Origin: an uncultured bacterium
GTDB lineage: Bacteria; Bacillota; Clostridia; Oscillospirales; Oscillospiraceae
Direction of reading: 5' to 3'
Length of the DNA stretch: 64,000 nt
Assembly (NCBI GenBank): GCA_946548895.1
Contig: CAMNQF010000001.1
Coordinates: forward strand, 141,024 to 205,023
Shown in pieces: positions 3,660 to 52,100 of this stretch; the stretch's first letter is position 1; every line of letters starts with the position of its first letter. The notes under the pieces were generated by a model, which saw only the letters and a list, made by a program, of their open reading frames with translations, was not told the origin of the DNA and searched no databases. The position numbers and the translations under genes are program-made.

Positions 3660-3721
3660 CCTGGACCGTTCCATTCCCAAAATAAAGCAGGGCGGCGGGC
3701 CGCTGGTTTCCCCCCCGATTT

Positions 3722-3750
3722 GGAAAGAGCCGCCGGCCGGACGCGGCGGC
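3722..3750 (-). terminator. Rho-independent terminator of the VWA/MoxR/SWIM operon
   Basis: On the minus strand GCCGCC...GGCGGC forms a GC stem followed by TCTTTCC. It is placed just after the VWA gene stop at 3764 and upstream of the ftsE promoter. Confidence 0.55.
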
Positions 3751-3763
3751 CCAAGGCGCGGCT

Positions 3764-5388: not shown

Positions 5389-5400
5389 ACGCTTACCTCC

Positions 5401-7659
5401 TCAGATGTCGTCAAAGTCAAACTCGTCCAGGCTGTCCAGCGCCGCTTGCTCCGTCTCGGTGAGGTCATTCATCAAAACCTCCGCCGCCTGCCGGGGATTG
5501 GCCCCCCAGATTTCCCCCAGGTTTTCCGCGATGTCGTTCTTCTCAGAGGGCGTGAAGTCCGCGAACGCCCGGCGCAGAAAGACCAGTGCCCGGCGGAAAG
5601 CCCCGTCGTCCAGGCCGCCGAGGTAGCCGTCCAGCTGCCGCCATAGCGGCAGGCGGGCAATGAGGGCATAGCGGTTTTTGCCCGCCAGCCCCTCGAACCA
5701 CCCCGCGCCCAAGTCGGCGGGCACCCCGGGGGACAGCCGCCGGGCCACCTCCCGGGACAGCAGGCTTTCGTCCGCCCTGCCCCGTTCCAGCAGGATGGCC
5801 ATGGCGAAGCCGGAGCAGCGGGTGTTCAGGTCGTCCCGGTCGGAGATGTCCTCCAGCAGGGAGACCCAGCGGCCCTCCTCTAAAAAATCGTGACTGAGCT
5901 GGAGCGTGTTGAGCTGGTCCATCGCTTTTATGGCCGCCGGGGCGGCCTGCGCGTCGCAGGCGCAGGCGTCCGCCAGGGTGAGGCAGGCCCGGAGGTAGAG
6001 CTGTTTCACCAGGGGGACCACGGGCTTGGGATCAAACCGGCGCAGGTCGCCGTACCGCACCACCAGGGACAGCCGGACAGCGGTCTCCGCCACGTCGGCG
6101 ATGGCGGCGGAATCCACGCTCAATCCCTGCAAAACGGACAGGGCGTGGCTGGCGGCGGCGGGCATACCGCACAGGAAGGCGTCCTGAAAGATGGCGGCAG
6201 CCTCGGAGATGGAGGCGCTGCTGTCCGCCCGCTCCTTCAGGGCGAAGGCCGCCGCGCCCTGGATGGTGTCCCCCATGAGGGCGGATTCCACGATTTCGAT
6301 CTCTGCCTCCGGGGTCCAGCGCAGCTCCCAGTATTCGCCCCAGCTGGCCCCGTCCTGCCGGGAGGGGAGCGGATTGGCGAAATGCACCCCCAGCACCCGC
6401 AGGCGGTGGAGAAAGAAAGAACGCCGCAGGTCGGCCAGGGCGGCCGTCTCCGATTTGACGTTCAGCTTCTCCCGCAGGTCCAGGTCCAGCCGCTGGAGCC
6501 CGGCGGTGCGGAATCTCTCCAGCCGCAGTTCCTTGAGCTGGCGGTAGAAGTCCTCCTGCACGGAGGTCCGGCTCACCCCCTGGGGAAGGAATCCGATCTT
6601 TTTCCCGATTTCCGTGTCCGCCGCGGCCAGGGCCAGCTCGGAGAACTGCCCGTGCCCCATGGTGGCGACGGCGGCGTCCCGCAGGTCGGCCAGGGTGGGA
6701 TACCGGCTCCCCCGCATGGCCGCCAGGGCGCCGGCCAGCCGCGCCGCCTCAATGACCTCGGCGGAAGACACCAGATTGCCCGCCTTTCGGTGGGCGGCGG
6801 CCAGCCGGGTGAGGTAGAGGTAAGGGGCACGGTCCAGGCCGTCCCCGTTCATCGCGTCCCACAGCAGTTCAAAGTAGGCCGGGGCCCGGTTCCCCGCCCC
6901 ATAGCCGGAGCGGGAGGACAGCCGGTAATAGGAATAGGGCATCAAGGTGGCGCGGGAGGGAACCGCAGGCAGGGCGGCCAGCTCCTGACCGCTCAGGGGG
7001 GTGTTTTCCTCCAGGCCGGCCACGTGAAAGGCCCCGCAGACGCAGAAAATCTGCTCAGACGGCGTCCCCCCGCCGGCGGCGTCCAGAATGACCCGCTTCA
7101 TATACGCCTCCCGCACCACAGTCTCCGCGGCGCGGCGGGGGCTGTCCTCTGCCGCCGCCCGCAGCTCCCGGCCAAAGGCGCTGGCCGCGGCTTGATAGTT
7201 CGCCTCCAGCTGCTCAAAGCGCCGCTCCCAAAAGGTGTCGTGGTCCTCTCCCGTCAGCGTCTCCAGGCGGCGGTAGACGCTCTCGGTGTCCGCCCGCCCG
7301 GCGGCCTCCTCCGGCGGCAGCCCCTCCTGGGCCTCCTCCAGGGCCAAAAACACCGAAGAGGGCAGGTCCATGAAACGGCACTCCACCCCGTGCTCACGGG
7401 CCCACAGAATGGCTTGGATCTCCGGGGAGTAAATGGCGAAGGGCCACAAAATGGTCCGCACCGGCGGCGTTTGGGTGTAGGCCAGGATGGCGGCGGGGAA
7501 CCGCGTCTCAGGGCTGGACAGCCACCGCATCTGATCGTTCAGGTCGCTGGGGCCCTCCACCAGCACCAGCCGGGGGCGGGCTTCGTCCAGGGCCCTCCGC
7601 ACCTGGACGGCCGCCGCCGGGGACAGGTGGCGCACGCCGAAAAACACCGGCTTTCTCAT
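5401..7659 (-). CDS. DUF5682 family protein with TraB/TIKI-like motifs
   Basis: 752 aa. I recognise the DUF5682 type, found with MoxR, VWA and SWIM genes in scattered bacteria. The N-terminal ~220 residues show a motif set resembling the TraB/PrgY/TIKI and EreA/ChaN-like superfamily: GVRH (residues 8-11), LVEGP (Glu ~35), REAYM (~183-187) and GAFHVAGL (His ~212). In TIKI/TraB the two GxxH motifs and acidic residues form the proposed metal/catalytic centre, so an enzymatic role (protease or esterase-like) is plausible but unproven. The rest is helical and Ala/Leu-rich, perhaps a scaffold. No signal peptide or TM segment. The start overlaps the MoxR stop by 4 nt. Confidence 0.8.
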   Translation of the reverse strand: MRKPVFFGVRHLSPAAAVQVRRALDEARPRLVLVEGPSDLNDQMRWLSSPETRFPAAILAYTQTPPVRTILWPFAIYSPEIQAILWAREHGVECRFMDLPSSVFLALEEAQEGLPPEEAAGRADTESVYRRLETLTGEDHDTFWERRFEQLEANYQAAASAFGRELRAAAEDSPRRAAETVVREAYMKRVILDAAGGGTPSEQIFCVCGAFHVAGLEENTPLSGQELAALPAVPSRATLMPYSYYRLSSRSGYGAGNRAPAYFELLWDAMNGDGLDRAPYLYLTRLAAAHRKAGNLVSSAEVIEAARLAGALAAMRGSRYPTLADLRDAAVATMGHGQFSELALAAADTEIGKKIGFLPQGVSRTSVQEDFYRQLKELRLERFRTAGLQRLDLDLREKLNVKSETAALADLRRSFFLHRLRVLGVHFANPLPSRQDGASWGEYWELRWTPEAEIEIVESALMGDTIQGAAAFALKERADSSASISEAAAIFQDAFLCGMPAAASHALSVLQGLSVDSAAIADVAETAVRLSLVVRYGDLRRFDPKPVVPLVKQLYLRACLTLADACACDAQAAPAAIKAMDQLNTLQLSHDFLEEGRWVSLLEDISDRDDLNTRCSGFAMAILLERGRADESLLSREVARRLSPGVPADLGAGWFEGLAGKNRYALIARLPLWRQLDGYLGGLDDGAFRRALVFLRRAFADFTPSEKNDIAENLGEIWGANPRQAAEVLMNDLTETEQAALDSLDEFDFDDI

Positions 7660-8750
7660 TGCCCGTTCAGCTCCCGGCAGGCCCGGTAAAGGGGGAGCCA
7701 GGCAGAGCCCCGCTTCTTCATCACGTTTTCCAGGTACTCCTTCCAGGACACTTTATCCTTGTCCTCATCTTTCACCACCGCGCCCTGGAGGGCGGCGGCC
7801 AGGTCCTCCGCTGTGATTGCGCCGGTTCCGAAGCTGCCCGCCAGGGCCATGGAGTTGGCCAGCAGGGAGATGGCCTCGGCGGTGGACAGCACCCCGGAGG
7901 TGGGCTTCAGCTTCTGTTTGCCGTCCAGGGTAGCCCCGGCCCGCAGCTCCCGGAAGATTGTCACCACCTGTTCCACCGTGTCCTCCTCCGGCTGGCGGGC
8001 GTTCAGGTCCAGGCCGGCGGACAGCTGGGCCACCCGGGTGCGCACGATGTCCATCTCGGTGGCCATGTCGGACGGGGTGGGGAGCACCACGATGTTGAAG
8101 CGCCGCTTTAGGGCGGCGGACATATCGTTGACGCCCTTGTCACGGGTATTGGCGGTGGCGATGACTGAGAAGCCCTTGGCGGCGGGCACCTCCAGCCCCA
8201 GCTCGGGGACGCTGAGGCGCTTCTCCGACAGGATGGAGATCAGCGCGTCCTGCACCTCGCTGGCGCAGCGGGAGATCTCCTCCACCCGGGCGACAGAGCC
8301 CGTCTCCATGGCCCGGTACACCGGGCTCTTCACCATGGCCTCGGGGCAGGGGCCTTTGGCGATGAGCATGGCGTAGTTCCAGGAGTAGCGGATCTGTTCC
8401 TCGGTGGTGCCCGCCGTGCCCTGGACCACCTTGGTGGAATCGCCGTTGACGGCGGCGGCCAGGTGCTCGGACAGCCAGGACTTGGCGGTGCCCGGTTCGC
8501 CGATGAGCAGCAGGGCCCGGTCCGTCACCAGGGTGGCGATGGCGATCTCCACCAGCCGTTTGTTGCCCACGTACTTGGGGGTGATGTCCACCCCCTTTAC
8601 CTTTGCGCCCCCGGTGATGTAGGTGAGCGCCGACCGGGGGGACATCCGCCAGCCGGTGGGAATGGGGTCGGCCTCCGCCGAAATCAGGGCGTCCAGCTCC
8701 CGCTGAAACAGCTCCTCCGCCGGGAGGCGCTGTACGTTTTTGTCTGCCAT
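7656..8750 (-). CDS. MoxR-family AAA+ ATPase
   Basis: 364 aa. Walker A GEPGTAKSW (about 84-92), Walker B-like VEEISRC followed by DALISILSEKRL, and sensor-1 VIATANTRDKG fit the MoxR/RavA-type AAA+ fold used for remodelling or metal-cofactor insertion. An insertion around FNIVVLPTPSDMATEMDIV precedes the lid domain. MoxR proteins act with VWA proteins, and one is encoded two genes downstream. RBS and coupling: the stop overlaps DUF5682 by 4 nt; the start is 15 nt after the HEAT-like gene. Expected to be the energy source of the operon's complex. Client unknown. Confidence 0.9.
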   Translation of the reverse strand: MADKNVQRLPAEELFQRELDALISAEADPIPTGWRMSPRSALTYITGGAKVKGVDITPKYVGNKRLVEIAIATLVTDRALLLIGEPGTAKSWLSEHLAAAVNGDSTKVVQGTAGTTEEQIRYSWNYAMLIAKGPCPEAMVKSPVYRAMETGSVARVEEISRCASEVQDALISILSEKRLSVPELGLEVPAAKGFSVIATANTRDKGVNDMSAALKRRFNIVVLPTPSDMATEMDIVRTRVAQLSAGLDLNARQPEEDTVEQVVTIFRELRAGATLDGKQKLKPTSGVLSTAEAISLLANSMALAGSFGTGAITAEDLAAALQGAVVKDEDKDKVSWKEYLENVMKKRGSAWLPLYRACRELNGQ

Positions 8751-12503: not shown

Positions 12504-13301
12504 TCACTTGCCGGTAAAGACCGGCTTGCGCTTTTCGATAAACGCGTCCACGGCTTCCTCAAAATCGCGGGACTTGGAGCACAGGTGGTTGGCCTCGGCC
12601 TCATCCTCCGCGTAGGCGCGGAAGCCGTCCTCATAGAAATACTTGTTTATGAGCTGCTTCTGGCAGGCGAGGGCTTTGCCGGGCCCCTTGGCCAGCCGGG
12701 CCGCAAACTGCGCCCCGGCCTGCGCCAGCTCTTCCTCCGGCACGCACTGGTTCGCCAGGCCGATTTGAACGGCCTCTTCGCCGCCCACCGGGCGGCCGGT
12801 CATCATGATTTCCGCCGCGCGGCCGGCGCCCGCCAGTTTGCCCAGCAGGTAGAGGCCCCCGGTGTCAGAGCAAAGACCCACGTTGATGAAAGCCATGATA
12901 AAGCTTGTCTTCGGCGTGACAATGCGGAAATCACAGGCGCAGGCGATGCTGAACCCCGCGCCCGCCGCCGCGTGGTTGACCACCGCCACGGTGGGTTTTG
13001 TGAAGCTGCGGATCTGGTAGGCCGTGTCGGCGGCGTAGCGCAGCTCCTCCTTGGTCAGGTAAACCTTGTCGGTGATGCGGCTCTTGAACTGGCGGATGTC
13101 GCCGCCGGCGCAAAAATGCTTCCCCATGCCGGTAAGGACGACCACACGGACATCCTCATCCGCCTCGCAGGCCTCCAGCTTCTCCTTGAGGGCCGCGTAC
13201 ATATCGAAGTCCAGGGCGTTCCCGTTTTCCGGGCTGTTGAAGGCCAGGGTCGCCACATGGCCGGACTGACTCATCAGAACAAGCTCTTTCATGTTTGCCA
13301 C
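12504..13301 (-). CDS. Enoyl-CoA hydratase/isomerase family protein
   Basis: 265 aa crotonase-fold protein, last of a four-gene acyl-CoA operon. The oxyanion-hole segments LAFNSPENGNALD and GKHFCAGGDI, and the core AVVNHAAAGAGFSIACACDF, are typical. At the position of the hydratase glutamate pair the sequence has GLCSDTGGLYLLGKLAG, where the usual second acidic residue (PDxGG or PExGG) appears as SDTGG. Substrate and exact reaction (hydratase or isomerase) cannot be read from this. Cytoplasmic. Neighbours suggest it hydrates the enoyl-CoA made by the acyl-CoA dehydrogenase. The gene starts 1 nt after the CoA-transferase stop. Confidence 0.88.
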   Translation of the reverse strand: MANMKELVLMSQSGHVATLAFNSPENGNALDFDMYAALKEKLEACEADEDVRVVVLTGMGKHFCAGGDIRQFKSRITDKVYLTKEELRYAADTAYQIRSFTKPTVAVVNHAAAGAGFSIACACDFRIVTPKTSFIMAFINVGLCSDTGGLYLLGKLAGAGRAAEIMMTGRPVGGEEAVQIGLANQCVPEEELAQAGAQFAARLAKGPGKALACQKQLINKYFYEDGFRAYAEDEAEANHLCSKSRDFEEAVDAFIEKRKPVFTGK

Positions 13302-13302
13302 C

Positions 13303-14592
13303 TCACCGTGCGATCAGGCCGGCCTTGACCGCCTGCTGGGTCAGCTCGCCGCGGAAATCGGGGTGGGCGATGCCGATCATGGCGCGGACGCGGTCGGGTA
13401 TGGATTTGTTCCTCAAATTGGCGATGCCGTATTCGGTGACGATGTACATGACCATTGCCCTGGGGGTGGTGACTACCTCGCCGGCGGGCAGGTTCAGCAT
13501 GATGTTGGACGTGGGCTTTCCGTTGACCTCTGTGGTAGAGGCCATGCACAAAAAGCTCTTGCCGCCCTTTGACCAGGAGGCGCCCTGCACAAAATCGATC
13601 TGCCCGCCGATGCCGCTGACCTGCTGGTGGCCCACGGATTCGGAACAGACCTGACCCGTCAGATCGGCCATCAGGCACTGGTTTACCGAGATGAGGCTGT
13701 CATAATGCTGCACGTTCCGGGGATCGTTGATCTCCCAGAAGGGGGCAAACTCCGCGTGTTCGCCCAGCCAGTAGGCAAATTTGTTGCTTCCCAGGCCCAG
13801 CGCGGCCTCGATCTTTCCCGTGATGGCGCCGGCCTCGTAGAGGTGCATGATGCACTCGGTGAGCATCTCCGCATGGATGGACAGGCCGCGTTTAGACTTC
13901 AGGCCGTAGCCGATGGCGTTGGACAAGCCGCCCAGCCCGATTTGAACGGTGGAGCCGTCAGGGATTTCAGGCAAGATGAGGGACGCGATTTTTTGGTCCA
14001 GCTCCGAGGGCTCGGGGCTGGGGAACTCCGGCAGAACGTGGTCGCCCTCGGTGATTGCGGTCACCTCGCTGACGTGGATCTTGCTGCTGCGGCCCTTCAC
14101 GCGGGGCTGGTTCCGATTGACCTGCACCAAAATGACGTCGGACATTTCCAGCGCCTTCGGGGTGATGCACACGCCCATGGGGCCCAGAGACATATAGCCC
14201 TCCTCGTCGGGTTCGCTCACGTCGCACATACACACATTGATGCGGCAATCCTCCAGAGCGTTGGCCAGCTGGCTGAACTGGCAGGAGTTGATGCTGATGT
14301 TGCCGAATTTGGCCAGCTTGCGTTCCAGGATGCCGAAAAACATGGTATCATAGGTCAGGTGGGGGCGGTGCTCGGCGGACTTCAGGAACTCAAAGGGGAC
14401 CAGCATCTGGCCCGAGACCAGGTGGACTCCGTTGATTTCTTTGGCCAGCGCCCTCTTTTGGAGCGCCTCAATCAGCTGGATGGGGGTTGCCGAGGCCGGG
14501 CTCATCCAGACGCGGTCGTTATCCTTGATGAGCGCCACCGCCTCGTCAAAGGTCGTCAGTTTGGAGTTGTATATATCCCGCCAGTTACTCAT
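13303..14592 (-). CDS. Acetyl-CoA hydrolase/transferase family CoA-transferase
   Basis: 429 aa, close in type to 4-hydroxybutyrate or butyryl-CoA:acetate CoA-transferases. The motif SIHAEM (Glu ~242) matches the active-site glutamate region of this family, and SGIGGQIDFVQGA is its conserved CoA-binding glycine loop. It would exchange CoA between an acyl-CoA and acetate or another acid without ATP. In this operon it could release the end product as free acid, or activate the incoming acid alongside the AMP-forming ligase. Cytoplasmic. The start overlaps the ligase stop by 8 nt. Exact acids unknown. Confidence 0.88.
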   Translation of the reverse strand: MSNWRDIYNSKLTTFDEAVALIKDNDRVWMSPASATPIQLIEALQKRALAKEINGVHLVSGQMLVPFEFLKSAEHRPHLTYDTMFFGILERKLAKFGNISINSCQFSQLANALEDCRINVCMCDVSEPDEEGYMSLGPMGVCITPKALEMSDVILVQVNRNQPRVKGRSSKIHVSEVTAITEGDHVLPEFPSPEPSELDQKIASLILPEIPDGSTVQIGLGGLSNAIGYGLKSKRGLSIHAEMLTECIMHLYEAGAITGKIEAALGLGSNKFAYWLGEHAEFAPFWEINDPRNVQHYDSLISVNQCLMADLTGQVCSESVGHQQVSGIGGQIDFVQGASWSKGGKSFLCMASTTEVNGKPTSNIMLNLPAGEVVTTPRAMVMYIVTEYGIANLRNKSIPDRVRAMIGIAHPDFRGELTQQAVKAGLIAR

Positions 14593-16153
14593 GATGATCC
14601 TCCTTCAATTGTTTTACGAGCTCGCGAATTTTTTGATAGTCCACCTTCCCTACCGAACTGCGTGGGATGCTGTCCACAAAATGGATCTCCCGGGGCCGTT
14701 TTGCGCCGCTGAGATGCCTTCTCAGGTGCGCCTCCAGCGCCTCCGGGGACACGGGTCCGTCTCCGGCCACCACAAGGGCGTGGGGCACCTCTCCCCAATA
14801 ATCGTCCGGGACGCCGTAGACGCAGGCCTCCCGGACCCCGTCAAACTGCGTGATGCACTCCTCAATCTCCACCGGGAATATGTTTTCGCCGCCTACGATA
14901 ATCATATTCTTCTTCCGGCCCACCACATAGAGGTATCCGTCCGAATCCTGCCGGGCAATATCGCCTGTGTGCAGCCATCCGTCGTGCCAGACGTTCCGCG
15001 TTTCCTCCTCCTGATTGAGGTATCCTGAGAAGAGCAGCGGCCCCCGGAAGCACAGCTCTCCCGCCTCCCCCGGGGCGACCGGGGCTCCGTCCTCGTCCAC
15101 AATCTGCACCTCGTTGAGGCACAAAGGCTTGCCTACGGAGTTCCAGCGCTTCCTTAAATCCTCCACGCCGGTCATGTCCATCGGCAGGGAGAGGTTGTTG
15201 GGGCCGGCCTCGGTCATCCCGAAGGAATTGCATATTTTGATTCCCCGGCTCAAATATTTTTCCAGGGTTTTCTGCCGGACCGGGGCAGCCCCCACAATGA
15301 GCCAGCGCAGGGCGGACAGGTCGGCGGAGGCGAAATCGGGGTGCTCCGCCAGAATGGCGTAAATCGTCGGGACAGAGACGCCCACGGTAACCCGCTCCTG
15401 TTGGAGAAGGCGCAGGATTTCGCCGGGATCCAGGTCCCGTTTGAGCACCATCTTGCCCCCGCAGAACAAGAGGGGCAGATTGATGACGTTCCAGCCGCCG
15501 GTGTGAAAAAGGGGCAGGAACTGGTACCCCACGTCCCGGTAGGACAGGCCGAACGAAATGATCTCGCTGATGCAGTTGCTGACCACCGCCCGGTAGGACA
15601 TTTTTGACGCCTTGGGCAGGCCGGTGGAGCCGCCGGTGTGGATATACATCATGCAGTCCTCGGGGTCCGGCCTGACGGGCGGCAGCGGCGGAAGGTCCTG
15701 AGCCAGCAGCGCGTCATACTCCCATACGCCCGCTTTCGACGGGCTGCCGTGCAGGACCGCCAGGGCCTTGAGGTAAGGCAGCTTTGCCCATTCCTCCACC
15801 CGGTCCTCCTGCGCCGCGTCATAGAGCAGCGCCTCCGGCCGCTCCTGTTCCATCAGCTGCGCGATCTCCTCCGGCTTCAGCATATGGTTGTATGTGGTGA
15901 TGGTAATGCCGGTCTTCCATGACACGTAGAACATATCGTAATGGGCAATGGAGTTGCGCGCGCATATGGCCGCGCAGCTCCCCCGCTTCAGCCCCAGCCG
16001 GTGCACCAGGAAACGGGCCAGGCGGTCGGCGCGCGCGTCCATCTCCCGATAGGTGTACTGCGCGCCGGTATCATAGTCATAAATCGCCGTTTTGTCTCCA
16101 TTCCACCTGGCTTGGAAGGAGAAAAAGTCTAAATATTCCTGTTCCATGGCCAT
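14585..16153 (-). CDS. AMP-forming acyl-CoA synthetase (class I adenylate-forming)
   Basis: 522 aa. The adenylation signature TGGSTGLPKASK (P-loop-like), FGMTEAGPNN (A5) and WLHTGDIARQDSDGYLYVVGRKKNMI (A7-A8), and the C-terminal lysine in SSVGKVDY (A10) are all present, so it should be active. It activates a carboxylic acid to acyl-AMP and then acyl-CoA. The substrate is not evident; candidates are medium-chain, aryl-alkyl or carnitine-like acids, since the operon resembles small beta-oxidation or cai-like units. The start ATG is 6 bp after the dehydrogenase stop. Confidence 0.88.
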   Translation of the reverse strand: MAMEQEYLDFFSFQARWNGDKTAIYDYDTGAQYTYREMDARADRLARFLVHRLGLKRGSCAAICARNSIAHYDMFYVSWKTGITITTYNHMLKPEEIAQLMEQERPEALLYDAAQEDRVEEWAKLPYLKALAVLHGSPSKAGVWEYDALLAQDLPPLPPVRPDPEDCMMYIHTGGSTGLPKASKMSYRAVVSNCISEIISFGLSYRDVGYQFLPLFHTGGWNVINLPLLFCGGKMVLKRDLDPGEILRLLQQERVTVGVSVPTIYAILAEHPDFASADLSALRWLIVGAAPVRQKTLEKYLSRGIKICNSFGMTEAGPNNLSLPMDMTGVEDLRKRWNSVGKPLCLNEVQIVDEDGAPVAPGEAGELCFRGPLLFSGYLNQEEETRNVWHDGWLHTGDIARQDSDGYLYVVGRKKNMIIVGGENIFPVEIEECITQFDGVREACVYGVPDDYWGEVPHALVVAGDGPVSPEALEAHLRRHLSGAKRPREIHFVDSIPRSSVGKVDYQKIRELVKQLKEDHHE

Positions 16154-16158
16154 TGGTA

Positions 16159-17301
16159 TTAAGCCTTTTGCTTTAAGACGTTGCCGGCAATGACCATGCG
16201 CTGGATCTCGTTGGTCCCCTCGAAGATTTGGAAGATTTTCGCGTCGCGGTAGAGCTTTTCCACCGGGTACTCCCGGCTGTATCCATAGCCGCCGAAGATC
16301 TGCACGGCCTCCTGCGTCACCTTGACGGCGCTGTCGCTGGCGTAGGCCTTCGCGACGGCGGCCTCTGTGGAATGGGGCTTGCCCGCCTTGATGAGGCCGG
16401 CCACATACCGAACGTACTGCCGGCTGGTTTCGGTGGCGATTTCCATGTCGGCCAACTTAAACTGGATGGCTTGGTTCACAGCAATCGGCCGGCCGAAGGT
16501 CTTTCGCTGGAGGGCGTAATCCCGGCACAGGTCGATGGCCGCCTGGCAGATGCCCACCGCGGCGGCGCCGCAGGACGGACGGGCCATATCCAGGGTTTTC
16601 ATTGCCAGCTTGAAGCCCTCTCCCTCGGCGCCGATGAGATTTTCCGCGGGCACCCGGACGTCCTCAAAAACTACGTCGGTGGTGTTGGACAGGCGTATGC
16701 CCATCTTATCCTCTTCCTTCCCCACGCTCACGCCCGGGGCGCCGCGCTCCACGATAAAGGCGGACATCCCTTTTACGCCCTTGGATTTGTCGGTCATGGC
16801 GAATACCACGTAGACGTCCGCCATGCCGCCGGTGGTGATGAAGCACTTCCTGCCGTTGAGCACATAGCCGCCGCCGTCCCGGACGGCTGCGGTCTGGCTG
16901 GCCCCCGCGTCCGAACCGGCCTGGGGTTCGGTCAGGCAGAAAGCGGCCATTTTGCCCTGGGCCAGTATATCCGTGAACATCTGGATCTGGCGGTCCGTCC
17001 CCGCGATCAGCAGGGGTTTGGCGGCCAGGCCGCTGGCGAAGAGGCTGACAGAGAAGCCGGCGTCGTATTTGGCCAATTCCTCCTGCACGATTACGGCGGT
17101 AACCGGGTCAAATCCGCCGCCGCCGAACTTCTCCGGGAGGTCGATCATGTGCAGCCCCATCTCCAGGGCCTTGTTATAGAGGTCCGTGGGGAATTCTCCG
17201 GTGCGGTCGCACTCCTGGGCTCTTTTCAGCACTTCATTTTTGCCAAATTTGGCAATCATCTGCTGAAGTTCTTTCTGCTCTTCCGTCAGCATCCAGTCCA
17301 T
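16159..17301 (-). CDS. Acyl-CoA dehydrogenase
   Basis: 380 aa, the standard length. Signatures LTEPQAGSDAGA (FAD/substrate), QRKTFGRPI and IFEGTNEIQR are present; the glutamate in FEGTNEIQ is the usual catalytic base position of short/medium-chain enzymes. It oxidises an acyl-CoA to the 2-enoyl-CoA with FAD. No EtfAB genes are seen in this window. First gene of the operon dehydrogenase-ligase-CoA-transferase-hydratase. Two matching palindromes (17322-17348, 17401-17427) lie between it and divergent tetR genes, the first only about 20 bp before its start, so TetR-type repression is likely. Confidence 0.92.
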   Translation of the reverse strand: MDWMLTEEQKELQQMIAKFGKNEVLKRAQECDRTGEFPTDLYNKALEMGLHMIDLPEKFGGGGFDPVTAVIVQEELAKYDAGFSVSLFASGLAAKPLLIAGTDRQIQMFTDILAQGKMAAFCLTEPQAGSDAGASQTAAVRDGGGYVLNGRKCFITTGGMADVYVVFAMTDKSKGVKGMSAFIVERGAPGVSVGKEEDKMGIRLSNTTDVVFEDVRVPAENLIGAEGEGFKLAMKTLDMARPSCGAAAVGICQAAIDLCRDYALQRKTFGRPIAVNQAIQFKLADMEIATETSRQYVRYVAGLIKAGKPHSTEAAVAKAYASDSAVKVTQEAVQIFGGYGYSREYPVEKLYRDAKIFQIFEGTNEIQRMVIAGNVLKQKA

Positions 17302-24489: not shown

Positions 24490-26148
24490 CTAATCGGAAT
24501 GGTCCTGTTCCGAGCCGGCGTCCTGGGATTTGCCGGGCTTCAGGTTGCGCTTGCGCAGCAGGATGTCCTCTTTTCGGTAGCGGCGCATATACTCCAAGAC
24601 GCGGTAGCTGAACAAAAGCCGCTCCCGAAGCAGGGGGCTGTCCAGGCTCTGGCCGATCACGGACTCAATTTTTCGGACCTTGTAGAGCATGGTATTGCGG
24701 TGGATATAGAGCGCTTTGGCGGCCTCCGCCGAGTTGCGTTCACAGCACAGGTAGGTGTAGAGCACGTCGGTGAGATTGCCGCCGGTCTTGTTATCATACA
24801 TCACAAGGGAGATCAGGGACGGGTGGCAGAGGTGGATGATATTGCGGCTGCCCAAATTCTGCCGGGCGGACTGCTCCGCCATCTCCACGATCTGGTACAC
24901 GCTGTAATCCTCATAATAGTAGATCCGCTTGTCCGGCTCCATGGCCAGGCCCAGCCGGAGGGCTCCCTGGGTCTGATAGTAGACCGGCGGCAGGGAGGTG
25001 AGAAACTCGGAGAAGTTCCCAATGGCGGCGTGGCCATCGTGATACTCCAGGATCTGGGTCAGGGCCTGCTCGTCAAAGGACAGGCGCACCCCCCGGTTCA
25101 TCTTGCGCACCAGGAGCAGGATCTGGCCCCGGTAGGTGGTGATATCGCTGAAGGGGAAAATCCGTTCCAGCTGGCTGATGACATAGTTCCAGGGGGTGCT
25201 GCCGTGCTCCTGCTTGTCCACAAAAGAGACCAGTATCACGTGGTAATACCGCCGGGTGGCCAGCTTGATCTGCTTGAGCCGCTGTTCCAGCTCCTCCGGG
25301 TCGATGAGGCGGAACTCGATCAGGTCGGCCACCAGGGCGCCGAAATTGGCGTTGCTGGTGTAGTCCACGCTTTTGTTGCTGAACATATATTGAGAGATAT
25401 AGTCGGACAGCACCCCGGCCAGGTCGGAACAGTAGGGGTCTGGCTCCCCGCCCGGGAGGATGACGATCAGCCGGGCGGCCAGGATGTCCCTGGAGCGCAC
25501 CACCCGGACAATGGTGTAGTTCCCGCTTTCCTTGGAGACGTACTCCATGAGATCCTGGTCCCTCCCGCCCAGCAGGGCGCTCTGCCGCCGGATGGCTTGG
25601 ATGGTGTCATAGGAGAGGTATCCGTTGTCCTGCAGTTCCCTGGCGGCCAAGTCCTGAACGTCCGGGTGGTGAACAGAGGCCAGGTGCTTAAAGCCGGCGT
25701 TCACCAGCAGGAGGGTGGCCCGGAAGGCGGAGGACGCCCGCCGCAGCACCTCCTGGATGCCGGCGTTGGTGTACACCGCCTCGTGGAGGCGGTCGTCCCA
25801 GTCCAAAAAGACGTGAACGTGCTCCTGGACCCGGTTGTAGAGGGGCAAGAGGGATAGGGAGGTCTCCAGCAGCCACAGCTGTTTGGGCAGGGGCGCGCCC
25901 TCCAGGGCGGAGCAGCTGCCCGCGCATATGATGCAGACCGGCCGGCCGGGAAGGCGGTCTGTTCGGACGGCCTGGACCACCGCCTCCCGCTCTCCGATAT
26001 AGAGGCAGTCGGAACGCAGCGGCGTGTCTCCGCCCCCTTCCAAAAGCTTGATGCCTCCGCGAAAATCGGGCCTGCCGCTGCCGGAATGGACGCGGAGGAC
26101 CACATCGGTGAGCCAGAAGCGGAGCATGGCGGGGGTATACATTCCCAT
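24490..26148 (-). CDS. PucR/CdaR family transcriptional regulator
   Basis: 552 aa from ATG 26148 (MGMYTPAML), with GGAGG eight bases upstream; the ORF-track start 12 codons earlier has no RBS. The C-terminal PucR-type HTH is clear: ERNSAEAAKALYIHRNTMLYKV. The N-terminal part (about 1-200) resembles the PucR purine-catabolism-like ligand domain and the middle is a GGDEF-like/CdaR-type fold with no catalytic motif visible. Such regulators usually activate nearby catabolic genes on binding a small molecule. It is divergent from the SLH-esterase gene, and two identical-core palindromes (TGTGC-N5-GCACA) lie in the gap, so it probably controls that gene and itself. Confidence 0.85.
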   Translation of the reverse strand: MGMYTPAMLRFWLTDVVLRVHSGSGRPDFRGGIKLLEGGGDTPLRSDCLYIGEREAVVQAVRTDRLPGRPVCIICAGSCSALEGAPLPKQLWLLETSLSLLPLYNRVQEHVHVFLDWDDRLHEAVYTNAGIQEVLRRASSAFRATLLLVNAGFKHLASVHHPDVQDLAARELQDNGYLSYDTIQAIRRQSALLGGRDQDLMEYVSKESGNYTIVRVVRSRDILAARLIVILPGGEPDPYCSDLAGVLSDYISQYMFSNKSVDYTSNANFGALVADLIEFRLIDPEELEQRLKQIKLATRRYYHVILVSFVDKQEHGSTPWNYVISQLERIFPFSDITTYRGQILLLVRKMNRGVRLSFDEQALTQILEYHDGHAAIGNFSEFLTSLPPVYYQTQGALRLGLAMEPDKRIYYYEDYSVYQIVEMAEQSARQNLGSRNIIHLCHPSLISLVMYDNKTGGNLTDVLYTYLCCERNSAEAAKALYIHRNTMLYKVRKIESVIGQSLDSPLLRERLLFSYRVLEYMRRYRKEDILLRKRNLKPGKSQDAGSEQDHSD

Positions 26149-26170
26149 GAAAAGCACCTCCAAACGAAAC

Positions 26171-26185
26171 TGTGCAGACCGCACA
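26171..26185. promoter_or_regulatory. Palindrome TGTGC-N5-GCACA, copy 1
   Basis: TGTGCAGACCGCACA, a perfect 5-bp inverted repeat with 5-bp spacer, between the pucR-type promoter and its start codon. Binding here would block elongation (autorepression). Confidence 0.55.
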
Positions 26186-26238
26186 AGATTTTTCGCCCAT
26201 TTATGGGCGACGGCCCAAAAAAGTTCTTATTTTCTTCA

Positions 26239-26267
26239 ATTATATCAAAAAAATAAGCAAAAATCAA
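26239..26267 (-). promoter_or_regulatory. Promoter of the PucR-type regulator
   Basis: On the minus strand TTGATT (26267-26262), 17-bp T-rich spacer, TATAAT (26244-26239). Confidence 0.8.
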
Positions 26268-26346
26268 CTACGTGAGACGGAGAAAGAGCTGGGAACGCAG
26301 GGGTCTTGTGTGCAATTTCCACAAAATGGCCTCTCAAAAAATGATA

Positions 26347-26361
26347 TGTGCAAAAAGCACA
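26347..26361. promoter_or_regulatory. Palindrome TGTGC-N5-GCACA, copy 2
   Basis: TGTGCAAAAAGCACA, same half-sites and spacing as copy 1, 176 bp away on the SLH-esterase side of the divergent gap. A weaker relative (TTGTG...CACAA) is at about 26306-26324. Likely operators of the adjacent regulator. No clear -35/-10 for the esterase gene was found in 26362-26470. Confidence 0.55.
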
Positions 26362-26491
26362 AAGTCTTTGGGCCGAGGGCACCTGTAAGCTGGTGATTTT
26401 TTGTGGTAGGATAAAAACAACAGCTTCCCCCAACGCACCGCCGCAAAGGGGGAAGCGAAGAGAAAACAGGAGCCAAGAAGGAGGAACAAAG

Positions 26492-29400
26492 ATGAAGAAA
26501 CGAATTCCCGCCCTGGCGTTGGCGCTGGCGGTCCTGATGACCGCGCTCCCGGTCAGGGCCCTCGCTTACAGCGACGTCTCGGGGCACTGGGCGCAGGGCG
26601 CCATTGAGAACAGTGAGAAGAGCGGATTCCTGGGCGGCTATGGGGACGGGACCTTCCGGCCCGACCAGCCGGTCACAGGCGCCGAGTTGGCCGGCGCCCT
26701 GAACAGCCTGCTGGGGACCAAGCTCCAGAGCTCCGCCCCCAGCCTGACCCGGCAGGACGCGGTGGTGATGATCGCCAAGGCGGTGAACATGGCCCCCGCG
26801 GATCAGGCTGAAGTGTCATTCGCCGACGCCGGCTCGATTTCCGCCGGCGCGCTGCCTTACGTGAACGCCATGGCTAACGGCGGCTATGTGAGGGGTTCCG
26901 CCGGACGGTTCCACCCCACCGCCGCCATGACCCGCGGAGAAGCCGCCACCGTGCTGGACAACCTCACCGACGGGGGCAGGGCGGTGGCAAAAGCTGATTC
27001 CGGCACCTACATTGGAAAGGTAATGAAGTCCAACGGCACCATTGCCTATCAAGGTATTCAATATGCCACGCATGAACGTTGGGAAGCGCCTGTTATGATT
27101 TCCGGGCGAAGCGATGTGATCCCCGCGCTGAACTTTGGCCCAAACTCCATTGACGGGTATGAAGACGACCTGAATCTCGTGGTTTATGTCAACCCCAACT
27201 CCACAAACCCCAATAAGTCGGTCTTTATGTGGCAGTATGGCTGCGGCCAGCGGGGCGGTGATACCGCAAACCATGATTGGAGCGGCTTTGTCGCCGAAAA
27301 CCCTGATATTATTGTTGTCACCCCCAACCATAGAGGCAATTTCTGGGGCAGCATTGATCTGAGCCAGCTACAGGGTTATGATGCTGTCGCCGATAAGTAT
27401 CAGTACTCCAACAATCTTGCCCGCCTTGACCTTCTAACCTGCTTGAAATGGATTAACAAGAACATCGCCGCATTCGGCGGCAACCCCAGGGACGTGACCA
27501 TCGGCGGCCAGTCCTCCGGTTCCAACAACTGTACCTGTCTCCTCATGATGGAAGAGGCTCATCCCTATTTCCAGAAGGCAATCATGGAGTCGTCTTTCTC
27601 TGTGGACATCTCTCTCCAGCCGTTGGATGACGCCAAATTTGTCTCTCAGCAGCTCTTTAACGAGCTGGGCGTGACTACGGTGGAGCAGCTTCTTGCCTGC
27701 ACTCCCGAGCAGATTAACGCCGTGAAGGATAAGTTCCTTTCCGCTTCCGCCAGCGGGTCTTCCGCCTTTGCCGAGATCGAATGCAAACTGTTCAGCCCGG
27801 TGGTGGACGGCGTTGTCATCCCCAATGACTACTATGAGTGCCTGATGAACGGTTCTCTTGCGGGCATCAAGTGCGTCTTTGGGTCCAATGCAGGCGAGTA
27901 TGACCAGCAGTATCTCAATAAGGACAAGACCCGTTACACAGACGAAGAGGCATTGGCCTTCACCGTGGAGCAGAACTGGGGCAAGCTGTCCGACCGCGGC
28001 TGGAACAAAGACAACGCCCAATCCGTGATTGACCAGTTCTACAGCCACAACGCCGAGTACGGGCGGGACAATTTTACTGCCGCCAAGGATTTGAAGAACG
28101 ATCTTTATCTCCGCATCGGTTCCCTGATGTATGCGGAGGCGGCCAGTGGATACACGGACGTTTATATGTACTACAATACCTTTGACGCGACACCGGCCGG
28201 GACTGCCCTCGATGATGATATCCGTGCCGCTCACGGCTCTGAGGTCAAGGTGATCAGCCGTAACTGGAGTGATCTGGAAAAGCCTGGCGCCCTGTTTGAT
28301 GTCGATCCGAACGCCCGCGAGTTTGCTTCCATGCTCAGCAACATCTGGGCCGCCTTTATCCGTACCGGCGATCCCAACTGTGCGGAAATCAAGGACAAGG
28401 GCGTTACCTGGACCAAATACGATTCCACCAGCCACAACACCCTGGTCATTGACGCCAAGCCCCAGATGGTCCAAGGCGTGCGGCAGAAGGACGTGGACCT
28501 GCTCATGCCGCTGTTCCGGGAGTATCCCCTGCTTCAGAATTTGAAGGTATCCTCCCCCGGCGTGTATTCCGGCTATAGCCGGGTTGAGTATGACGGCTAC
28601 AAGCGTTACAGCGTATACGTTCCCGTCAGCGACGGCACCAGGCTGGCTGTGGACTACTGCATCCCCACCAAGGACGGCGTGGAGGCCGGGGGCAAGTTCC
28701 CCGTGGTGTTTACCTATACTCCCTATGGCCGCCAGCGCGCCGATAACGCGGCCAGCGCCGAGTGGTTTACCAAGCACGGCTATATTTTCGCGGCCGCTGA
28801 CGCCCGGGGCATGGGGGCCTCTTTCGGCACCCGCGATTCCGCCAACTCCCCCCAGGAGGCCCAGGACGGCGCGGATGTGGTGGCCTGGATCCACGCCCAG
28901 AGCTGGTGCGACGGCAAAATCGGCACCATCGGCTCCTCCTATGTGGGCCAGACTCAGCTGGCCATTCTGAGCAAGACCAAACTGGTGGACGCCTCGGTCA
29001 TCGGCTGCACCGACTATAACAAGTATGACGGGTGGATCCGGGGGGGCGTGCCCCGCGCCTTCGGCTCCCAGCCGGACACCATGTGGGGTGAGACTGAGGC
29101 GGAGATCGCCGCCACCATCCAAAAGACGGTGGACAGCACCCCGGCCGTGGACGCTGACGCCGATAAAAAGCTCCTGGCCCAGGCCATCGCCGGTCATGTG
29201 GACAACGGCCTTCAGATCCCCATGTTCCAGCGCCTGCTCTGGCGGGACAGCTACTCCGAGGAAGTGGGCGGCGAATACTGGAACCTGGTCAGCGCCAGCA
29301 CCAACAAGCAGGCCATCAACGACTCCGGCTCCGCCATCTATCTGATGGGCGGCCTGTACGACGTATTCCGCCGGGATACCATCGTGACCTACCACAACCT

Positions 29401-30247
29401 GACCGGGCCCAAGAAGATGACCATCGGCCCCTGGTATCACACCAAGGCCAAGGTGGACCCGAACTGGGAGGTGGAGCAGCTGCGCTGGTTTGATTACTGG
29501 CTCAAGGGCATCGAAAACGGCGTCATGGATGAGGACCCCATTTACCTGAAAACCGCCAACCAGAGCGCGGACAACGGCTATACCTGGCTGAAGGAATGGC
29601 CCATGGACCAAGGCGGCAGCACCGCCATGTACCTGAACCGCGACGGCCGGCTCTCCCAGCAGAAGGCCGCGCAAGACAGCTTTATGGACTACGACGTGGT
29701 CTATGGCATTACCACCGGCGTGGAATCCGCCTCTTCCGCCGATGTGGACGCCAAGGGCCTGTGCTTTACCACCGCCCCCATGGACAAGGATTTCCGAATT
29801 TCCGGCCATGCCATGGCCCACATCAATTTTGAGATGCTCACGGACGACAAGGACATCGACTTCTTTGTCACGGTGTCCGACTATGATCCCGCCACCGGGG
29901 AGGCGTTTGTCTTTGACGACGGCCACCTGCGGGCGTCCCTGCGCCAGAGCAGCCAGGCTCCCTACAATTACCTGGGCCTGCCCTGGTTCAAGGCGGAGCA
30001 GGGAGACAACCAGTACCTGTCGAAGGGCCAGGTTTACAGTCTGGAATTTGACCTGATGCCCACCTCCTACATCATTCCGCGGGGCCATTGCCTGCGCGTC
30101 ACCGTCTCCAACTCCATGGACCGCTTCTATTACCTGGGCCGCGGGGAGTTTGAGGCCGACCCCAAGTGCGAGACGCCTGACATCCGGCTGTACACCGGGG
30201 GCGCGAACGCGTCCTATGTGGAATTCCCGGATATGCTGGCGGAATGA
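26492..30247 (+). CDS. SLH-anchored bifunctional hydrolase: carboxylesterase B fused to CocE/NonD-type hydrolase
   Basis: 1251 aa from ATG 26492 (MKKRIPALALALAV) with AAGGAGG; the longer ORF start lacks an RBS. Order: signal peptide (1-25); two SLH repeats (about 27-70 and 108-155) for cell-wall attachment; a type-B carboxylesterase domain (about 170-680) with GQSSG (Ser ~341), SNAGEYD (acid) and AAHGSE (His); and an X-Pro dipeptidyl-peptidase/CocE-like domain (about 690-1251) with GSSYVGQ (nucleophile), GGLYDVF (Asp) and GPWYHT (His). Both triads look complete. It should act outside the cell on esters or acylated compounds. The esterase part (about 27.0-28.4 kb) uses more A/T-ending codons than the flanking SLH and CocE parts, suggesting it was inserted from another source. 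Confidence 0.88.
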   Translation: MKKRIPALALALAVLMTALPVRALAYSDVSGHWAQGAIENSEKSGFLGGYGDGTFRPDQPVTGAELAGALNSLLGTKLQSSAPSLTRQDAVVMIAKAVNMAPADQAEVSFADAGSISAGALPYVNAMANGGYVRGSAGRFHPTAAMTRGEAATVLDNLTDGGRAVAKADSGTYIGKVMKSNGTIAYQGIQYATHERWEAPVMISGRSDVIPALNFGPNSIDGYEDDLNLVVYVNPNSTNPNKSVFMWQYGCGQRGGDTANHDWSGFVAENPDIIVVTPNHRGNFWGSIDLSQLQGYDAVADKYQYSNNLARLDLLTCLKWINKNIAAFGGNPRDVTIGGQSSGSNNCTCLLMMEEAHPYFQKAIMESSFSVDISLQPLDDAKFVSQQLFNELGVTTVEQLLACTPEQINAVKDKFLSASASGSSAFAEIECKLFSPVVDGVVIPNDYYECLMNGSLAGIKCVFGSNAGEYDQQYLNKDKTRYTDEEALAFTVEQNWGKLSDRGWNKDNAQSVIDQFYSHNAEYGRDNFTAAKDLKNDLYLRIGSLMYAEAASGYTDVYMYYNTFDATPAGTALDDDIRAAHGSEVKVISRNWSDLEKPGALFDVDPNAREFASMLSNIWAAFIRTGDPNCAEIKDKGVTWTKYDSTSHNTLVIDAKPQMVQGVRQKDVDLLMPLFREYPLLQNLKVSSPGVYSGYSRVEYDGYKRYSVYVPVSDGTRLAVDYCIPTKDGVEAGGKFPVVFTYTPYGRQRADNAASAEWFTKHGYIFAAADARGMGASFGTRDSANSPQEAQDGADVVAWIHAQSWCDGKIGTIGSSYVGQTQLAILSKTKLVDASVIGCTDYNKYDGWIRGGVPRAFGSQPDTMWGETEAEIAATIQKTVDSTPAVDADADKKLLAQAIAGHVDNGLQIPMFQRLLWRDSYSEEVGGEYWNLVSASTNKQAINDSGSAIYLMGGLYDVFRRDTIVTYHNLTGPKKMTIGPWYHTKAKVDPNWEVEQLRWFDYWLKGIENGVMDEDPIYLKTANQSADNGYTWLKEWPMDQGGSTAMYLNRDGRLSQQKAAQDSFMDYDVVYGITTGVESASSADVDAKGLCFTTAPMDKDFRISGHAMAHINFEMLTDDKDIDFFVTVSDYDPATGEAFVFDDGHLRASLRQSSQAPYNYLGLPWFKAEQGDNQYLSKGQVYSLEFDLMPTSYIIPRGHCLRVTVSNSMDRFYYLGRGEFEADPKCETPDIRLYTGGANASYVEFPDMLAE

Positions 30248-49147: not shown

Positions 49148-52100
49148 TCAGGTGTTTTCAATGAAGTTCTTCAGCATTTGCGCCGCTTCGGCACGGGTCG
49201 CAGTCCCTCCGGGGGTAAGCTGGCCGCTGCCATTGCCGTTCAAAATTCCGTTCTCCACGGCCCAGCACAGCGCCTCCTGGGCGTAGCTGCTGATCTGGTC
49301 CGCGTCCGTGAAGGCCGCCAGATCGCGGCCATTCGCCTTGGGGCTTCCCACGTACCGCCAGAGCATCACCACAAACTGCTCCCGCGTCACGCTGTCGTTG
49401 GGGCCGAACTGGCCGTCCCCATAGCCGTTTACGATGCCGTTCTCCGCGGCCCAGGCGACGCTGTCCGCATACCAGGCATCACCGCTGACATCGTGATACA
49501 CATCTGTCAGCGCCTGGTCCGGCTGGCCCTCCAGCCGGTACAGCACGGTGGCCACCATTGCGCGGCTTGTGGTCTGGTCTGGGCTGAACGTCGTTTCGCT
49601 GGTACCGTTGAACAGTTCGCGGGCGCTGGCGAAAGTCACAGCCTCAGCCGCCCAGCTTGTGGACGGCACGTCGGAAAACGTCTTGCTGTTGTCCACGATC
49701 TCTACCGTGGCGGAGCCGTTCAGCGGAGCGTTCAGCTTGCCGTCTTTTACCACGCTGCGCTGGAGGACCTCGCGGGTGCCGTCGTCATTGACCAGCACCG
49801 CCACGGTGCCGGGGCCGGCGTCCTCCGCCGGGACGGTGAGCGTCACGCCGCCAGGTACGTCCGCCACGGTTTCGCCCCCCGCCGTCAGGGTCAGCGCCAC
49901 CGCGCCGTCCACCTGCTCGGTGACTACGTTCACCGTGCCGCCCGCGCGGCTCAGGGTGTTCAGCGCCTCATGGGGGATGGTCGCGTCGGCGACAGGGGTG
50001 GAGACGGTGAGCGCCGCGTTCGTCTGGCTCTGGATCTGGCTCACTGTGGAGGCCGGGATGGACACCTGGGTTTTGGTCACGTCGCTGGTGATTTCCGGCT
50101 TGATGACAATTGTCTCGCTCTGGTTCCTGACCGCCTCCCTCACCAGCTGATTTCCGTCCGAGGCGCTCAGGACAGTGTTTGCCGTGCCGTTCTGGATGGT
50201 CGTCCGCGTCGGGGTGCCGTTTGTCTCCGCGGGCGGCGTGCTGTCTGTGGCTGTGCCGCCGCCGCCGCTTCCGCTTCCGCCGCCGGTGCCGCCGCCGCTG
50301 GCAGCGGAGACCGCCGCGACCTGAATCGTGACTGTGTTGTAGTTGGCGGCATCCTGCGGCGTGAAGACCACGTCATACGATTTCCCGGCTTCGGCCGTAA
50401 TGCCGCCATCCGCCCAGGCGAAGGCTCCCGGCACATCTGTGGCGCCGCCGTTCAGCTTAATTTCACTCAGCGGCTGTCCCGCGGCGCCGGACGCCGTGGG
50501 CGCCGTATTGACGCTCGGGTTTGCCTTTGCGATCTGTACTGTAATCTCCGCGGCGGCGATGCCGGTGTAATTCACGCTGTCCGCCACCCTGTACCAGACG
50601 GTGTACGTGCCAGCGGCGGTGCCGGTGGGGATTTGATCGGAATACGCGCCGTTCTGGCTCGTGCTGTACTCGATTGTGCCGATACCGCCAACCGTGCTGC
50701 CGCCGGTGACAAGGGCTTGCGCGCCGCCGGTGTACGTCAGGCCGGGGTCCGCCGGCTTGGCGTCCAGCTTCGCGTCCACCTTGTAAATGGCCGCCGTCGC
50801 GCTGTCGGGCCAGGTGATGAGGTAATTTCCATTTTTGCCGTCCGGGTTTTTGGACGTGATGGTTACCTGCTTGTTTGTACCGGCATCGGCCGTCGCAAAT
50901 TGGCCGTCCACCGTGAGCGGGATCGTATCCGTACCCACCAGGTCGCCGCTCTTCCAAACGGCGCTCAGTGTCGCGGCGGTGGTTCCGTCATAGGGCTTAT
51001 CCTGGGCTGTCACCACCGGGGTCACGGGCTTCGGGTTCGCGACGAAGGGTACGCTGGCCGTGTTGGATTTGCCGTAGCCGTCCGCCCCCTCCTTGTACGC
51101 CTCCACGGTGAATCCGCCTGTGCCCGTTACGGTCACGACGCCATTTTGGTCGATGGAAGCAATGCCGCTCTCCGCAACGCTCCACCGAATCGCGCCGCCG
51201 CCGGAGCCGCCCATGGCGCTCAGGCGGAAGGTATCGCCGTAGTGGACGTCAGTTGGAATGCTGGTGACGATGCTCAGGGGGTTCTGGCTGGCCGCCACGA
51301 TCTCAAAGGTCCCGGTGACGGGGGGATCGAACTGGTAGTTGCCGCCTGGGTTGTCCTTGACGGTAACGGTGTACGTGCCCACCGCGATCCGGGGCGCGGG
51401 CAGCTCCACGGTATATTCGCCCTCCGGGATAATGCGGTTTGCGCCGTCCCGGACCACGACGGCGGGGGTCTTTTCCGTGCCGTCATACGGGAAGGTGTTC
51501 TGCGTGCACAGGACGGTGGGCGTATCCGTGTTCACGGAAATGGTCACATTCTCCACCTTCGCGGGGGCGCTGTCCTTGTGGTTCTCGTCCCCGGCGACCA
51601 CCTTGTACCATACGGTGTAGCTGCCGGCGTCCACAGCGGTGGGCAGGCTGTAGCTGTAGCTGCCGCCATCCAGAGAATAGGCCAGCTCTCCGCCCTCCGC
51701 CGTGCCGGGGGTGACCAGGGTCAACGGACTGCCGTTGTAAGTCAGAGGACCTGTGGCCGCCTTCGGCGCTTCTGTCACACTTGCAGCCTTCGGGGTGATG
51801 GACGCCTTAGTCGTAGAGGGCCAACCGCTGACGTCGTATTTTTCCTTGACGCCGTCGGAAACCGTCAGGCCGGTAATGATAACCGTCTTGTTTTCCCCGG
51901 CATCAGCGTCCATGAAATGCCCCGCTGCGGTGACGCCGTCGGCGGGAATGACGTCGCCGGCGACCAGACCGCTGAGGGTGACGGTCAACGCGGCGTCTGT
52001 GCCGCCGTCATAGGGCTTATTCGCCGCCGTTACAACTGCGGTGACCGGCTTCGGGTTGACGTAGAAGGTCCACGTGTCGCTGACGCCGCTTTCAGCGGCC

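What the first reader, a model, noticed from the sequence alone, without database searches (positions are those of the whole stretch)
26492..30247. Surface protein fusing two different complete serine hydrolases
One chain has SLH anchors, a type-B carboxylesterase with full triad (GQSSG, GEYD, AAHG) and a CocE/NonD-type hydrolase with full triad (GSSYVG, GLYDVF, GPWYH). I know of no standard family with this order. It could process one substrate at two bonds outside the cell, such as diester drugs or acylated plant compounds.
Basis: partly seen in the sequence, partly recalled or inferred. Interest (0 to 1): 0.72.

Follow-up and report, generated by a model that had tools for sequence, protein, structure and literature searches.

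The report
Wall-anchored protein with two esterases
A gut-type bacterium (nearest named relative: an Oscillospiraceae genome from water-buffalo rumen) makes one surface protein that joins two different, apparently intact ester-cutting enzymes; the join was found in no other genome searched, it sits next to a regulator whose twin controls a second, single-esterase copy of the gene, and it is probably an inducible tool for opening esters outside the cell.

Summary
Window 26492-30247 (+) is one 1251-aa reading frame: signal peptide, SLH repeats, a type-B carboxylesterase (S341/E469/H581) and a CocE/NonD hydrolase (S816/D957/H983). Both halves pass curated cut-offs, align with solved enzymes at all triad residues and give confident AlphaFold models. 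The order is unique here: no second copy was found in about 1,200 genomes from genus to class, in a GTDB-wide scan for the CocE half, or on plasmids. The join lies where the genome's own single-esterase paralogue stops. The nearest CocE relatives are stand-alone and lack a signal peptide, so the fusion carries that enzyme to the surface. Multi-hydrolase surface proteins in other combinations are present in the same family, so the principle is not new. New here: the gene is divergent from a PucR-type regulator that is 60% identical to one beside the paralogue's acid/acyl-CoA operon. Both intergenic regions carry the palindrome TGTGC-N5-GCACA (3 of 9 exact sites genome-wide), which suggests one regulatory system for surface ester use. 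'One substrate, two bonds' is plausible but untested. The carboxylesterase half has an unusual oxyanion loop (YGCG for HGGG) and must be assayed. Verdict: a new variant of a known kind, of moderate interest.

The parts
26492..30247 (+). complete gene, 1251 aa: signal peptide - SLH - COesterase - CocE/NonD (S15 + PepX_C)
26492..26566 (+). predicted signal peptide (residues 1-25, MKKRIPALALALAVLMTALPVRALA)
   Evidence: hydrophobic peak 2.63 (Kyte-Doolittle, 12-residue window) at residue 8
26567..26692 (+). SLH repeat, residues 26-67
26816..26947 (+). second recognised SLH repeat, residues 109-152
26990..28498 (+). type-B carboxylesterase domain, residues 167-669
   Evidence: Pfam PF00135 169.6 bits; AlphaFold model pLDDT 84.5, pTM 0.91; Foldseek 2ogs, 8wdm, 1qe3
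27236..27247 (+). oxyanion-hole loop YGCG (residues 249-252), unusual
   Evidence: relatives have [HYF]GG[GAS]
27512..27514 (+). nucleophile Ser341 in GQSSG
   Evidence: invariant in the 36-sequence alignment
27896..27898 (+). acid Glu469 in GSNAGEYD
   Evidence: aligned with Glu of Est50/55; E or D in relatives
28232..28234 (+). His581 in AAHGSE
   Evidence: invariant in the 36-sequence alignment
28529..28591 (+). junction, residues 680-700 (LLQN-LKVSSPGVYSGY): end of the paralogue meets start of stand-alone CocE relatives
28631..29443 (+). CocE/NonD catalytic domain (S15), residues 714-984
   Evidence: model pLDDT 90.1, pTM 0.91; Foldseek 1ju3 cocaine esterase E 1.3e-39
28724..28726 (+). Tyr745 (TPYGR), matches oxyanion Tyr44 of CocE
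28937..28939 (+). nucleophile Ser816 in GSSYVG
   Evidence: at least 90% conserved
29360..29362 (+). Asp957 in GLYDVF, matches CocE Asp259
29438..29440 (+). His983 in GPWYH, matches CocE His287
29570..30115 (+). PepX_C jelly-roll domain, residues 1027-1208
24490..26184 (-). divergent PucR/CdaR-type regulator, 564 aa (true start probably about 26148)
   Evidence: HTH_30; 60% identical to the regulator beside the paralogue
26171..26185 (.). palindrome TGTGCAGACCGCACA, candidate operator
26309..26323 (.). near-palindrome TGTGCAATTTCCACA (1 mismatch)
26347..26361 (.). palindrome TGTGCAAAAAGCACA, candidate operator

Best explanation
It is an inducible, cell-wall-anchored double esterase. SLH repeats hold it outside the cell. 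The type-B carboxylesterase half opens an ester, and the CocE/NonD half, held a few tens of residues away, opens a second ester bond or a partial product of the same mixture. The freed acids and alcohols are then taken up and used through acyl-CoA enzymes. A PucR-type regulator encoded back to back with the gene senses the substrate or a product through TGTGC-N5-GCACA sites. The gene arose by duplication of a regulator/SLH-esterase unit and read-through into a CocE gene whose nearest relatives look cytoplasmic, so that this second enzyme gained export. Shown by sequence: anchoring repeats, two full triads, junction position, twin regulators, shared palindromes. Inferred: activity of both halves, a shared substrate, control by the regulator, and the fate of the products.
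For: Both halves pass curated cut-offs with all triad residues aligned to solved enzymes and give confident models matching carboxylesterases and cocaine esterase. Anchor: SLH plus a CsaB gene over cut-off and 72 SLH matches in the genome. Paralogue at G000:C5: SLH-COesterase alone, 39-40% identical, ending exactly at the fusion junction, inside an operon CitMHS transporter - two HGD-D subunits - esterase - CoA-transferase III - AMP ligase - MATE. Both loci have a divergent PucR-type gene, 60% identical over 542 aa, and TGTGC-N5-GCACA between the genes; 3 of the 9 exact sites in 3.8 Mb lie in these two short regions. The nearest stand-alone CocE relatives have no hydrophobic N-terminus. Published precedent: a natural CE6-CE1 esterase fusion works better than its separated domains (PMC7110780); tethered MHETase:PETase beats the free pair (PMC7568301).
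Against: The exact fusion occurs in one genome only, so selection for joint action cannot be shown by conservation. The oxyanion loop of the first half departs from the family (YGCG). No transporter or CoA enzymes directly follow the fusion gene; a sigma-54 gene does. The substrate is unknown. The carboxylesterase module has a lower synonymous GC3 than the rest of the gene (z -6.8), so the module may have come from elsewhere and need not share a pathway with the CocE half.
Confidence: 0.45

Rival explanations
1. Incidental fusion: loss of a stop codon joined two neighbouring esterase genes. Each half is active but serves its own, unrelated esters (general scavenging), and the only gain is export of the CocE half.
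For: Unique to one genome; the junction is exactly at the paralogue's stop; related CocE and carboxylesterase genes occur as separate neighbours elsewhere (L070; L114).
Against: The frame is intact over 3.75 kb with both triads kept; the regulator and palindromes show the locus is managed; tandem hydrolase proteins recur in the family.
Confidence: 0.33
2. The carboxylesterase half is weak or non-catalytic and mainly binds or presents the ligand (as in neuroligins), while the CocE half does the chemistry.
For: Oxyanion loop YGCG instead of HGG[GAS], and the usual EDCL motif replaced by YEDD; the paralogue also departs (TCGG).
Against: Ser, Glu and His are all kept, Ser and His invariant, and Tyr at the first loop position is normal (AChE type). 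Inactive family members such as neuroligins usually lose the Ser (established knowledge).
Confidence: 0.13
3. The second half is an X-Pro dipeptidyl-peptidase or alpha-amino-acid ester hydrolase, so the chain is a peptidase/esterase.
For: Pfam names S15 and PepX_C; Foldseek also lists AEH (1nx9, 1mpx) and PepX.
Against: NCBIfam Xaa-Pro dipeptidyl-peptidase scores 62.8 against a cut-off of 642, while CocE_NonD scores 236 against 66; the best sequence and fold hits are CocE.
Confidence: 0.06
4. Assembly artefact joining two genes.
For: Contigs cannot be checked against reads; single occurrence; GC3 differs between modules.
Against: Uninterrupted frame with domain-exact borders on both sides of the middle module; the contig is over 205 kb; 4% contamination overall.
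Confidence: 0.03

Closest known systems
Type-B carboxylesterases Est50/Est55 and B. subtilis p-nitrobenzyl esterase (PDB 2ogs, 2ogt, 1qe3)
   Same: fold, Ser-Glu-His triad, domain length
   Different: 24% identity or less; unusual oxyanion loop; SLH anchor; fused to a second enzyme
Cocaine esterase CocE and CocE/NonD family (PDB 1ju3; TIGR00976)
   Same: catalytic domain, jelly-roll C-terminus, triad and oxyanion Tyr
   Different: about 20% identity; tethered behind another esterase and exported
Own-genome paralogue G000:C5 (L060:4306-6816)
   Same: SLH + carboxylesterase, adjacent PucR-type regulator and palindrome
   Different: no CocE half; sits inside an acid/acyl-CoA operon
CocE + BD-FAE two-hydrolase proteins of the same bacterial family (confirmed by Pfam in L063, L066, L070, L073, L207; L064, L065, L067, L068, L072 look alike)
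   Same: two serine hydrolases in one chain, one of them CocE type
   Different: CocE comes first, the partner is BD-FAE, and Pfam finds no SLH
G183 protein L196: COesterase + alpha/beta hydrolase + metallo-beta-lactamase (twice) + 3 SLH
   Same: SLH-anchored chain with a carboxylesterase and other hydrolases
   Different: different partners; anchor at the C-terminus
CE6-CE1 fused acetyl/feruloyl esterases of Bacteroides ovatus and Flavobacterium johnsoniae (PMC7110780)
   Same: natural double esterase with two active domains and intramolecular synergy
   Different: other esterase families; xylan utilisation loci of Bacteroidetes

Membership tests
Type-B carboxylesterase (PF00135) | profile match over curated cut-off | tested here: met
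   169.6 against 27 bits
Type-B carboxylesterase (PF00135) | Ser-Glu/Asp-His triad in GxSxG context | tested here: met
   S341, E469, H581 aligned with Est50/55; Ser and His invariant in the 36-sequence alignment
Type-B carboxylesterase (PF00135) | HGG[G/A]-type oxyanion loop | tested here: not met
   YGCG in the fusion; 34 of 36 aligned sequences have [HYF]GG[GAS]. A variant inside the family rather than grounds for exclusion
Type-B carboxylesterase (PF00135) | fold | tested here: met
   TM 0.75-0.84 to 2ogs and 1qe3
Type-B carboxylesterase (PF00135) | esterase activity | not testable with these tools
   needs expression
CocE/NonD hydrolase (TIGR00976) | profile match over curated cut-off | tested here: met
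   236 against 66.3 bits over residues 711-1244
CocE/NonD hydrolase (TIGR00976) | Ser117/Asp259/His287 and Tyr44 equivalents | tested here: met
   S816, D957, H983, Y745
CocE/NonD hydrolase (TIGR00976) | catalytic + cap + jelly-roll fold | tested here: met
   PepX_C; model TM about 0.73 to 1ju3
Xaa-Pro dipeptidyl-peptidase (NF003780) | score over curated cut-off | tested here: not met
   62.8 against 642 bits
alpha-Amino-acid ester hydrolase | carboxylate cluster binding the substrate amino group | not tested
   only fold similarity seen
SLH-anchored surface protein | signal peptide, SLH repeats, pyruvylated wall polymer (CsaB) | tested here: met
   only two recognisable repeats
CE6-CE1 type fused carbohydrate esterase | catalytic domains from CE families 1 and 6 | tested here: not met
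   Pfam finds COesterase and S15, no CE1 or CE6 domain; works-like comparison only

The most novel reading that the evidence does not exclude
The two regulator/esterase units form one regulon with which a rumen or gut Oscillospiraceae bacterium senses and strips plant diesters of hydroxy acids at its surface (for example chicoric, phaselic or rosmarinic-type caffeoyl esters). The two fused enzymes cut both ester bonds of one molecule, and the hydroxy acid is dehydrated and reduced inside as acyl-CoA, as an energy or electron-accepting route.
Probability: 0.12. Interest if true: 0.65.

Novelty: new variant of a known kind. Interest (0 to 1): 0.4.

Why it matters
If both halves act on one compound, this would be a natural two-step ester-cutting machine fixed to a cell wall, comparable to engineered tethered pairs. 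It comes with a ready test system: a single-esterase twin, a twin regulator and a shared candidate operator in the same genome. The regulator and palindromes give a way to find the substrate by asking which compound triggers them. Beyond that, it shows how a cytoplasmic-type CocE enzyme can be moved outside by fusion.

Tried and rejected
A single-protein scan of GTDB contigs found nothing. The mixed alignment A1 had no stretch conserved enough to search with. A combined 76-sequence alignment (A3) put the two alpha/beta-hydrolase halves on top of each other and was discarded, so the halves were modelled apart and the relative position of the two active sites is not known. Xaa-Pro peptidase reading rejected on score. 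Paper searches for an SLH carboxylesterase/CocE fusion found no such protein; searches for links to hydroxy-acid or rosmarinate use gave nothing direct.

Full report
The observation. One open frame on the + strand, 26492-30247, encodes 1251 residues behind a good ribosome-binding site. In order it has a signal peptide, two recognisable SLH repeats (residues 26-67 and 109-152), a COesterase domain (167-669), a Peptidase_S15 domain (714-984) and PepX_C (1027-1208); NCBIfam-1244 CocE/NonD. The genome also encodes CsaB, needed for SLH anchoring (from general knowledge), and many SLH proteins.

Models. The carboxylesterase half reaches pLDDT 84.5 and pTM 0.91, the CocE half 90.1 and 0.91. Foldseek places the first with Est55, pNB esterase, a Thermaerobacter polyurethane-degrading carboxylesterase and the cholinesterases, and the second with cocaine esterase, Staphylococcus CocE/NonD, AEH and PepX. 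So both halves are complete domains. One oddity: the oxyanion loop of the first half reads YGCG, while 34 of 36 aligned sequences (all but the fusion and its paralogue) have [HYF]GG[GAS]. The paralogue is also odd (TCGG). Backbone amides could still form the hole, but activity of this half should not be taken for granted.

How the fusion arose. The same genome has a paralogue on contig 5: SLH plus carboxylesterase alone, 39-40% identical. It ends ...LMPLFEEYPLLRG-stop. The fusion reads ...LMPLFREYPLLQN-LKVSSPGVYSGY..., and the stand-alone CocE relatives read ...SAPGVYSGY... near their start. The join therefore falls exactly at the stop codon of the older gene. The nearest CocE relatives (about 46-48%) are stand-alone proteins in another genus of the same family. 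The nearest named hit is an Oscillospiraceae genome from water-buffalo rumen. They have no hydrophobic N-terminus, so the fusion probably exports an enzyme that is otherwise internal. Synonymous GC3 is lower in the carboxylesterase module than in the flanking modules (permutation z -6.8) and lower than in the paralogue, which suggests a mosaic history.

How common it is. No second protein with this pair was found in 42 congeners, 400 genomes of the family, 394 of the order or 391 of the class (the sets overlap). None was found among 79 loci kept from a GTDB-wide scan with the CocE half, nor on plasmids (no record covers 80%). The two genes are sometimes neighbours elsewhere (L114; L070 has a carboxylesterase near a CocE-type gene). 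What is common in the family is the general design: CocE-type plus BD-FAE in one chain, two S15 domains in one SLH protein, and an 1886-aa chain with a carboxylesterase, further alpha/beta hydrolases, two metallo-beta-lactamase domains and three SLH repeats. Published natural CE6-CE1 fusions show intramolecular synergy (PMC7110780), and engineered MHETase:PETase chimeras outperform the free pair (PMC7568301).

A regulatory link. The gene is transcribed away from a PucR-type regulator (24490-26184, -). The 300-nt gap holds TGTGCAGACCGCACA and TGTGCAAAAAGCACA, plus a near copy; the window expectation for exact matches is 0.07 and no shuffle had two. Genome-wide there are nine exact sites, against four for the reversed control pattern. 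One lies between a CitMHS transporter gene, which heads the paralogue's operon, and a second PucR-type gene that is 60% identical over 542 residues to the one in the window. Thus 3 of 9 sites fall within about 0.5 kb at the two esterase loci. This is strong evidence that the two loci are duplicates of one regulated unit. Binding itself is inferred.

What it probably does. The paralogue's operon (CitMHS transporter, two HGD-D proteins like 2-hydroxyacyl-CoA dehydratase or benzoyl-CoA reductase subunits, CoA-transferase III, AMP ligase, MATE) fits import and CoA-dependent breakdown of an organic acid, with the surface esterase releasing that acid. By analogy, the fusion is an inducible surface esterase for a related ester, with a second enzyme attached for a second bond. 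The nearest stand-alone CocE genes sit with a URO-D family protein, DUF2284 and two esterase-like genes (my reading of the sequences), which would suit methoxylated or acylated plant compounds. That is a hint only. Candidate diesters (chicoric, rosmarinic, dicaffeoylquinic acids) rest on general knowledge.

Verdict. The finding is real and correctly read at sequence level. The architecture is apparently unique, the principle is known, and the most useful new fact is the duplicated regulator/operator/esterase unit, which makes the substrate findable.

Noticed in passing
window 26149-26491 and L218:8107-8121 (G000:C5:116106-116120): Shared palindrome TGTGC-N5-GCACA in two divergent intergenic regions beside 60%-identical PucR-type regulators; candidate regulon.
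   Followed up: yes
L060:314-11168 (G000:C5): Operon with CitMHS transporter, two HGD-D proteins, SLH-carboxylesterase, CoA-transferase III, AMP ligase and MATE; looks like an organic-acid or aromatic-acid catabolic cluster.
   Followed up: partly
window 12507-17301 (-): Enoyl-CoA hydratase, butyryl-CoA:acetate-type CoA-transferase, AMP ligase and acryloyl-CoA reductase-like acyl-CoA dehydrogenase in a row, with a TetR gene upstream; all but the ligase score below their equivalog cut-offs (the ligase was scanned with Pfam only).
   Followed up: partly
L196:4712-10369 (G183): 1886-aa surface protein with carboxylesterase, further alpha/beta-hydrolase domains, two metallo-beta-lactamase domains and three SLH repeats.
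   Followed up: partly
L197:3-5168 (G056): One SLH-bearing chain with two S15 peptidase domains in tandem.
   Followed up: no
window 26990-28498: Synonymous GC3 of the carboxylesterase module is clearly lower than in the SLH and CocE modules (z -6.8).
   Followed up: partly
window 49148-56629 (-): 2493-aa open frame on the minus strand with three SLH repeats; a very large surface protein.
   Followed up: no
window 2003-8750 (-): FtsX-like permease, ABC ATPase, VWA/CoxE, DUF5682 and MoxR-type AAA genes in a row, resembling a MoxR-VWA system.
   Followed up: no
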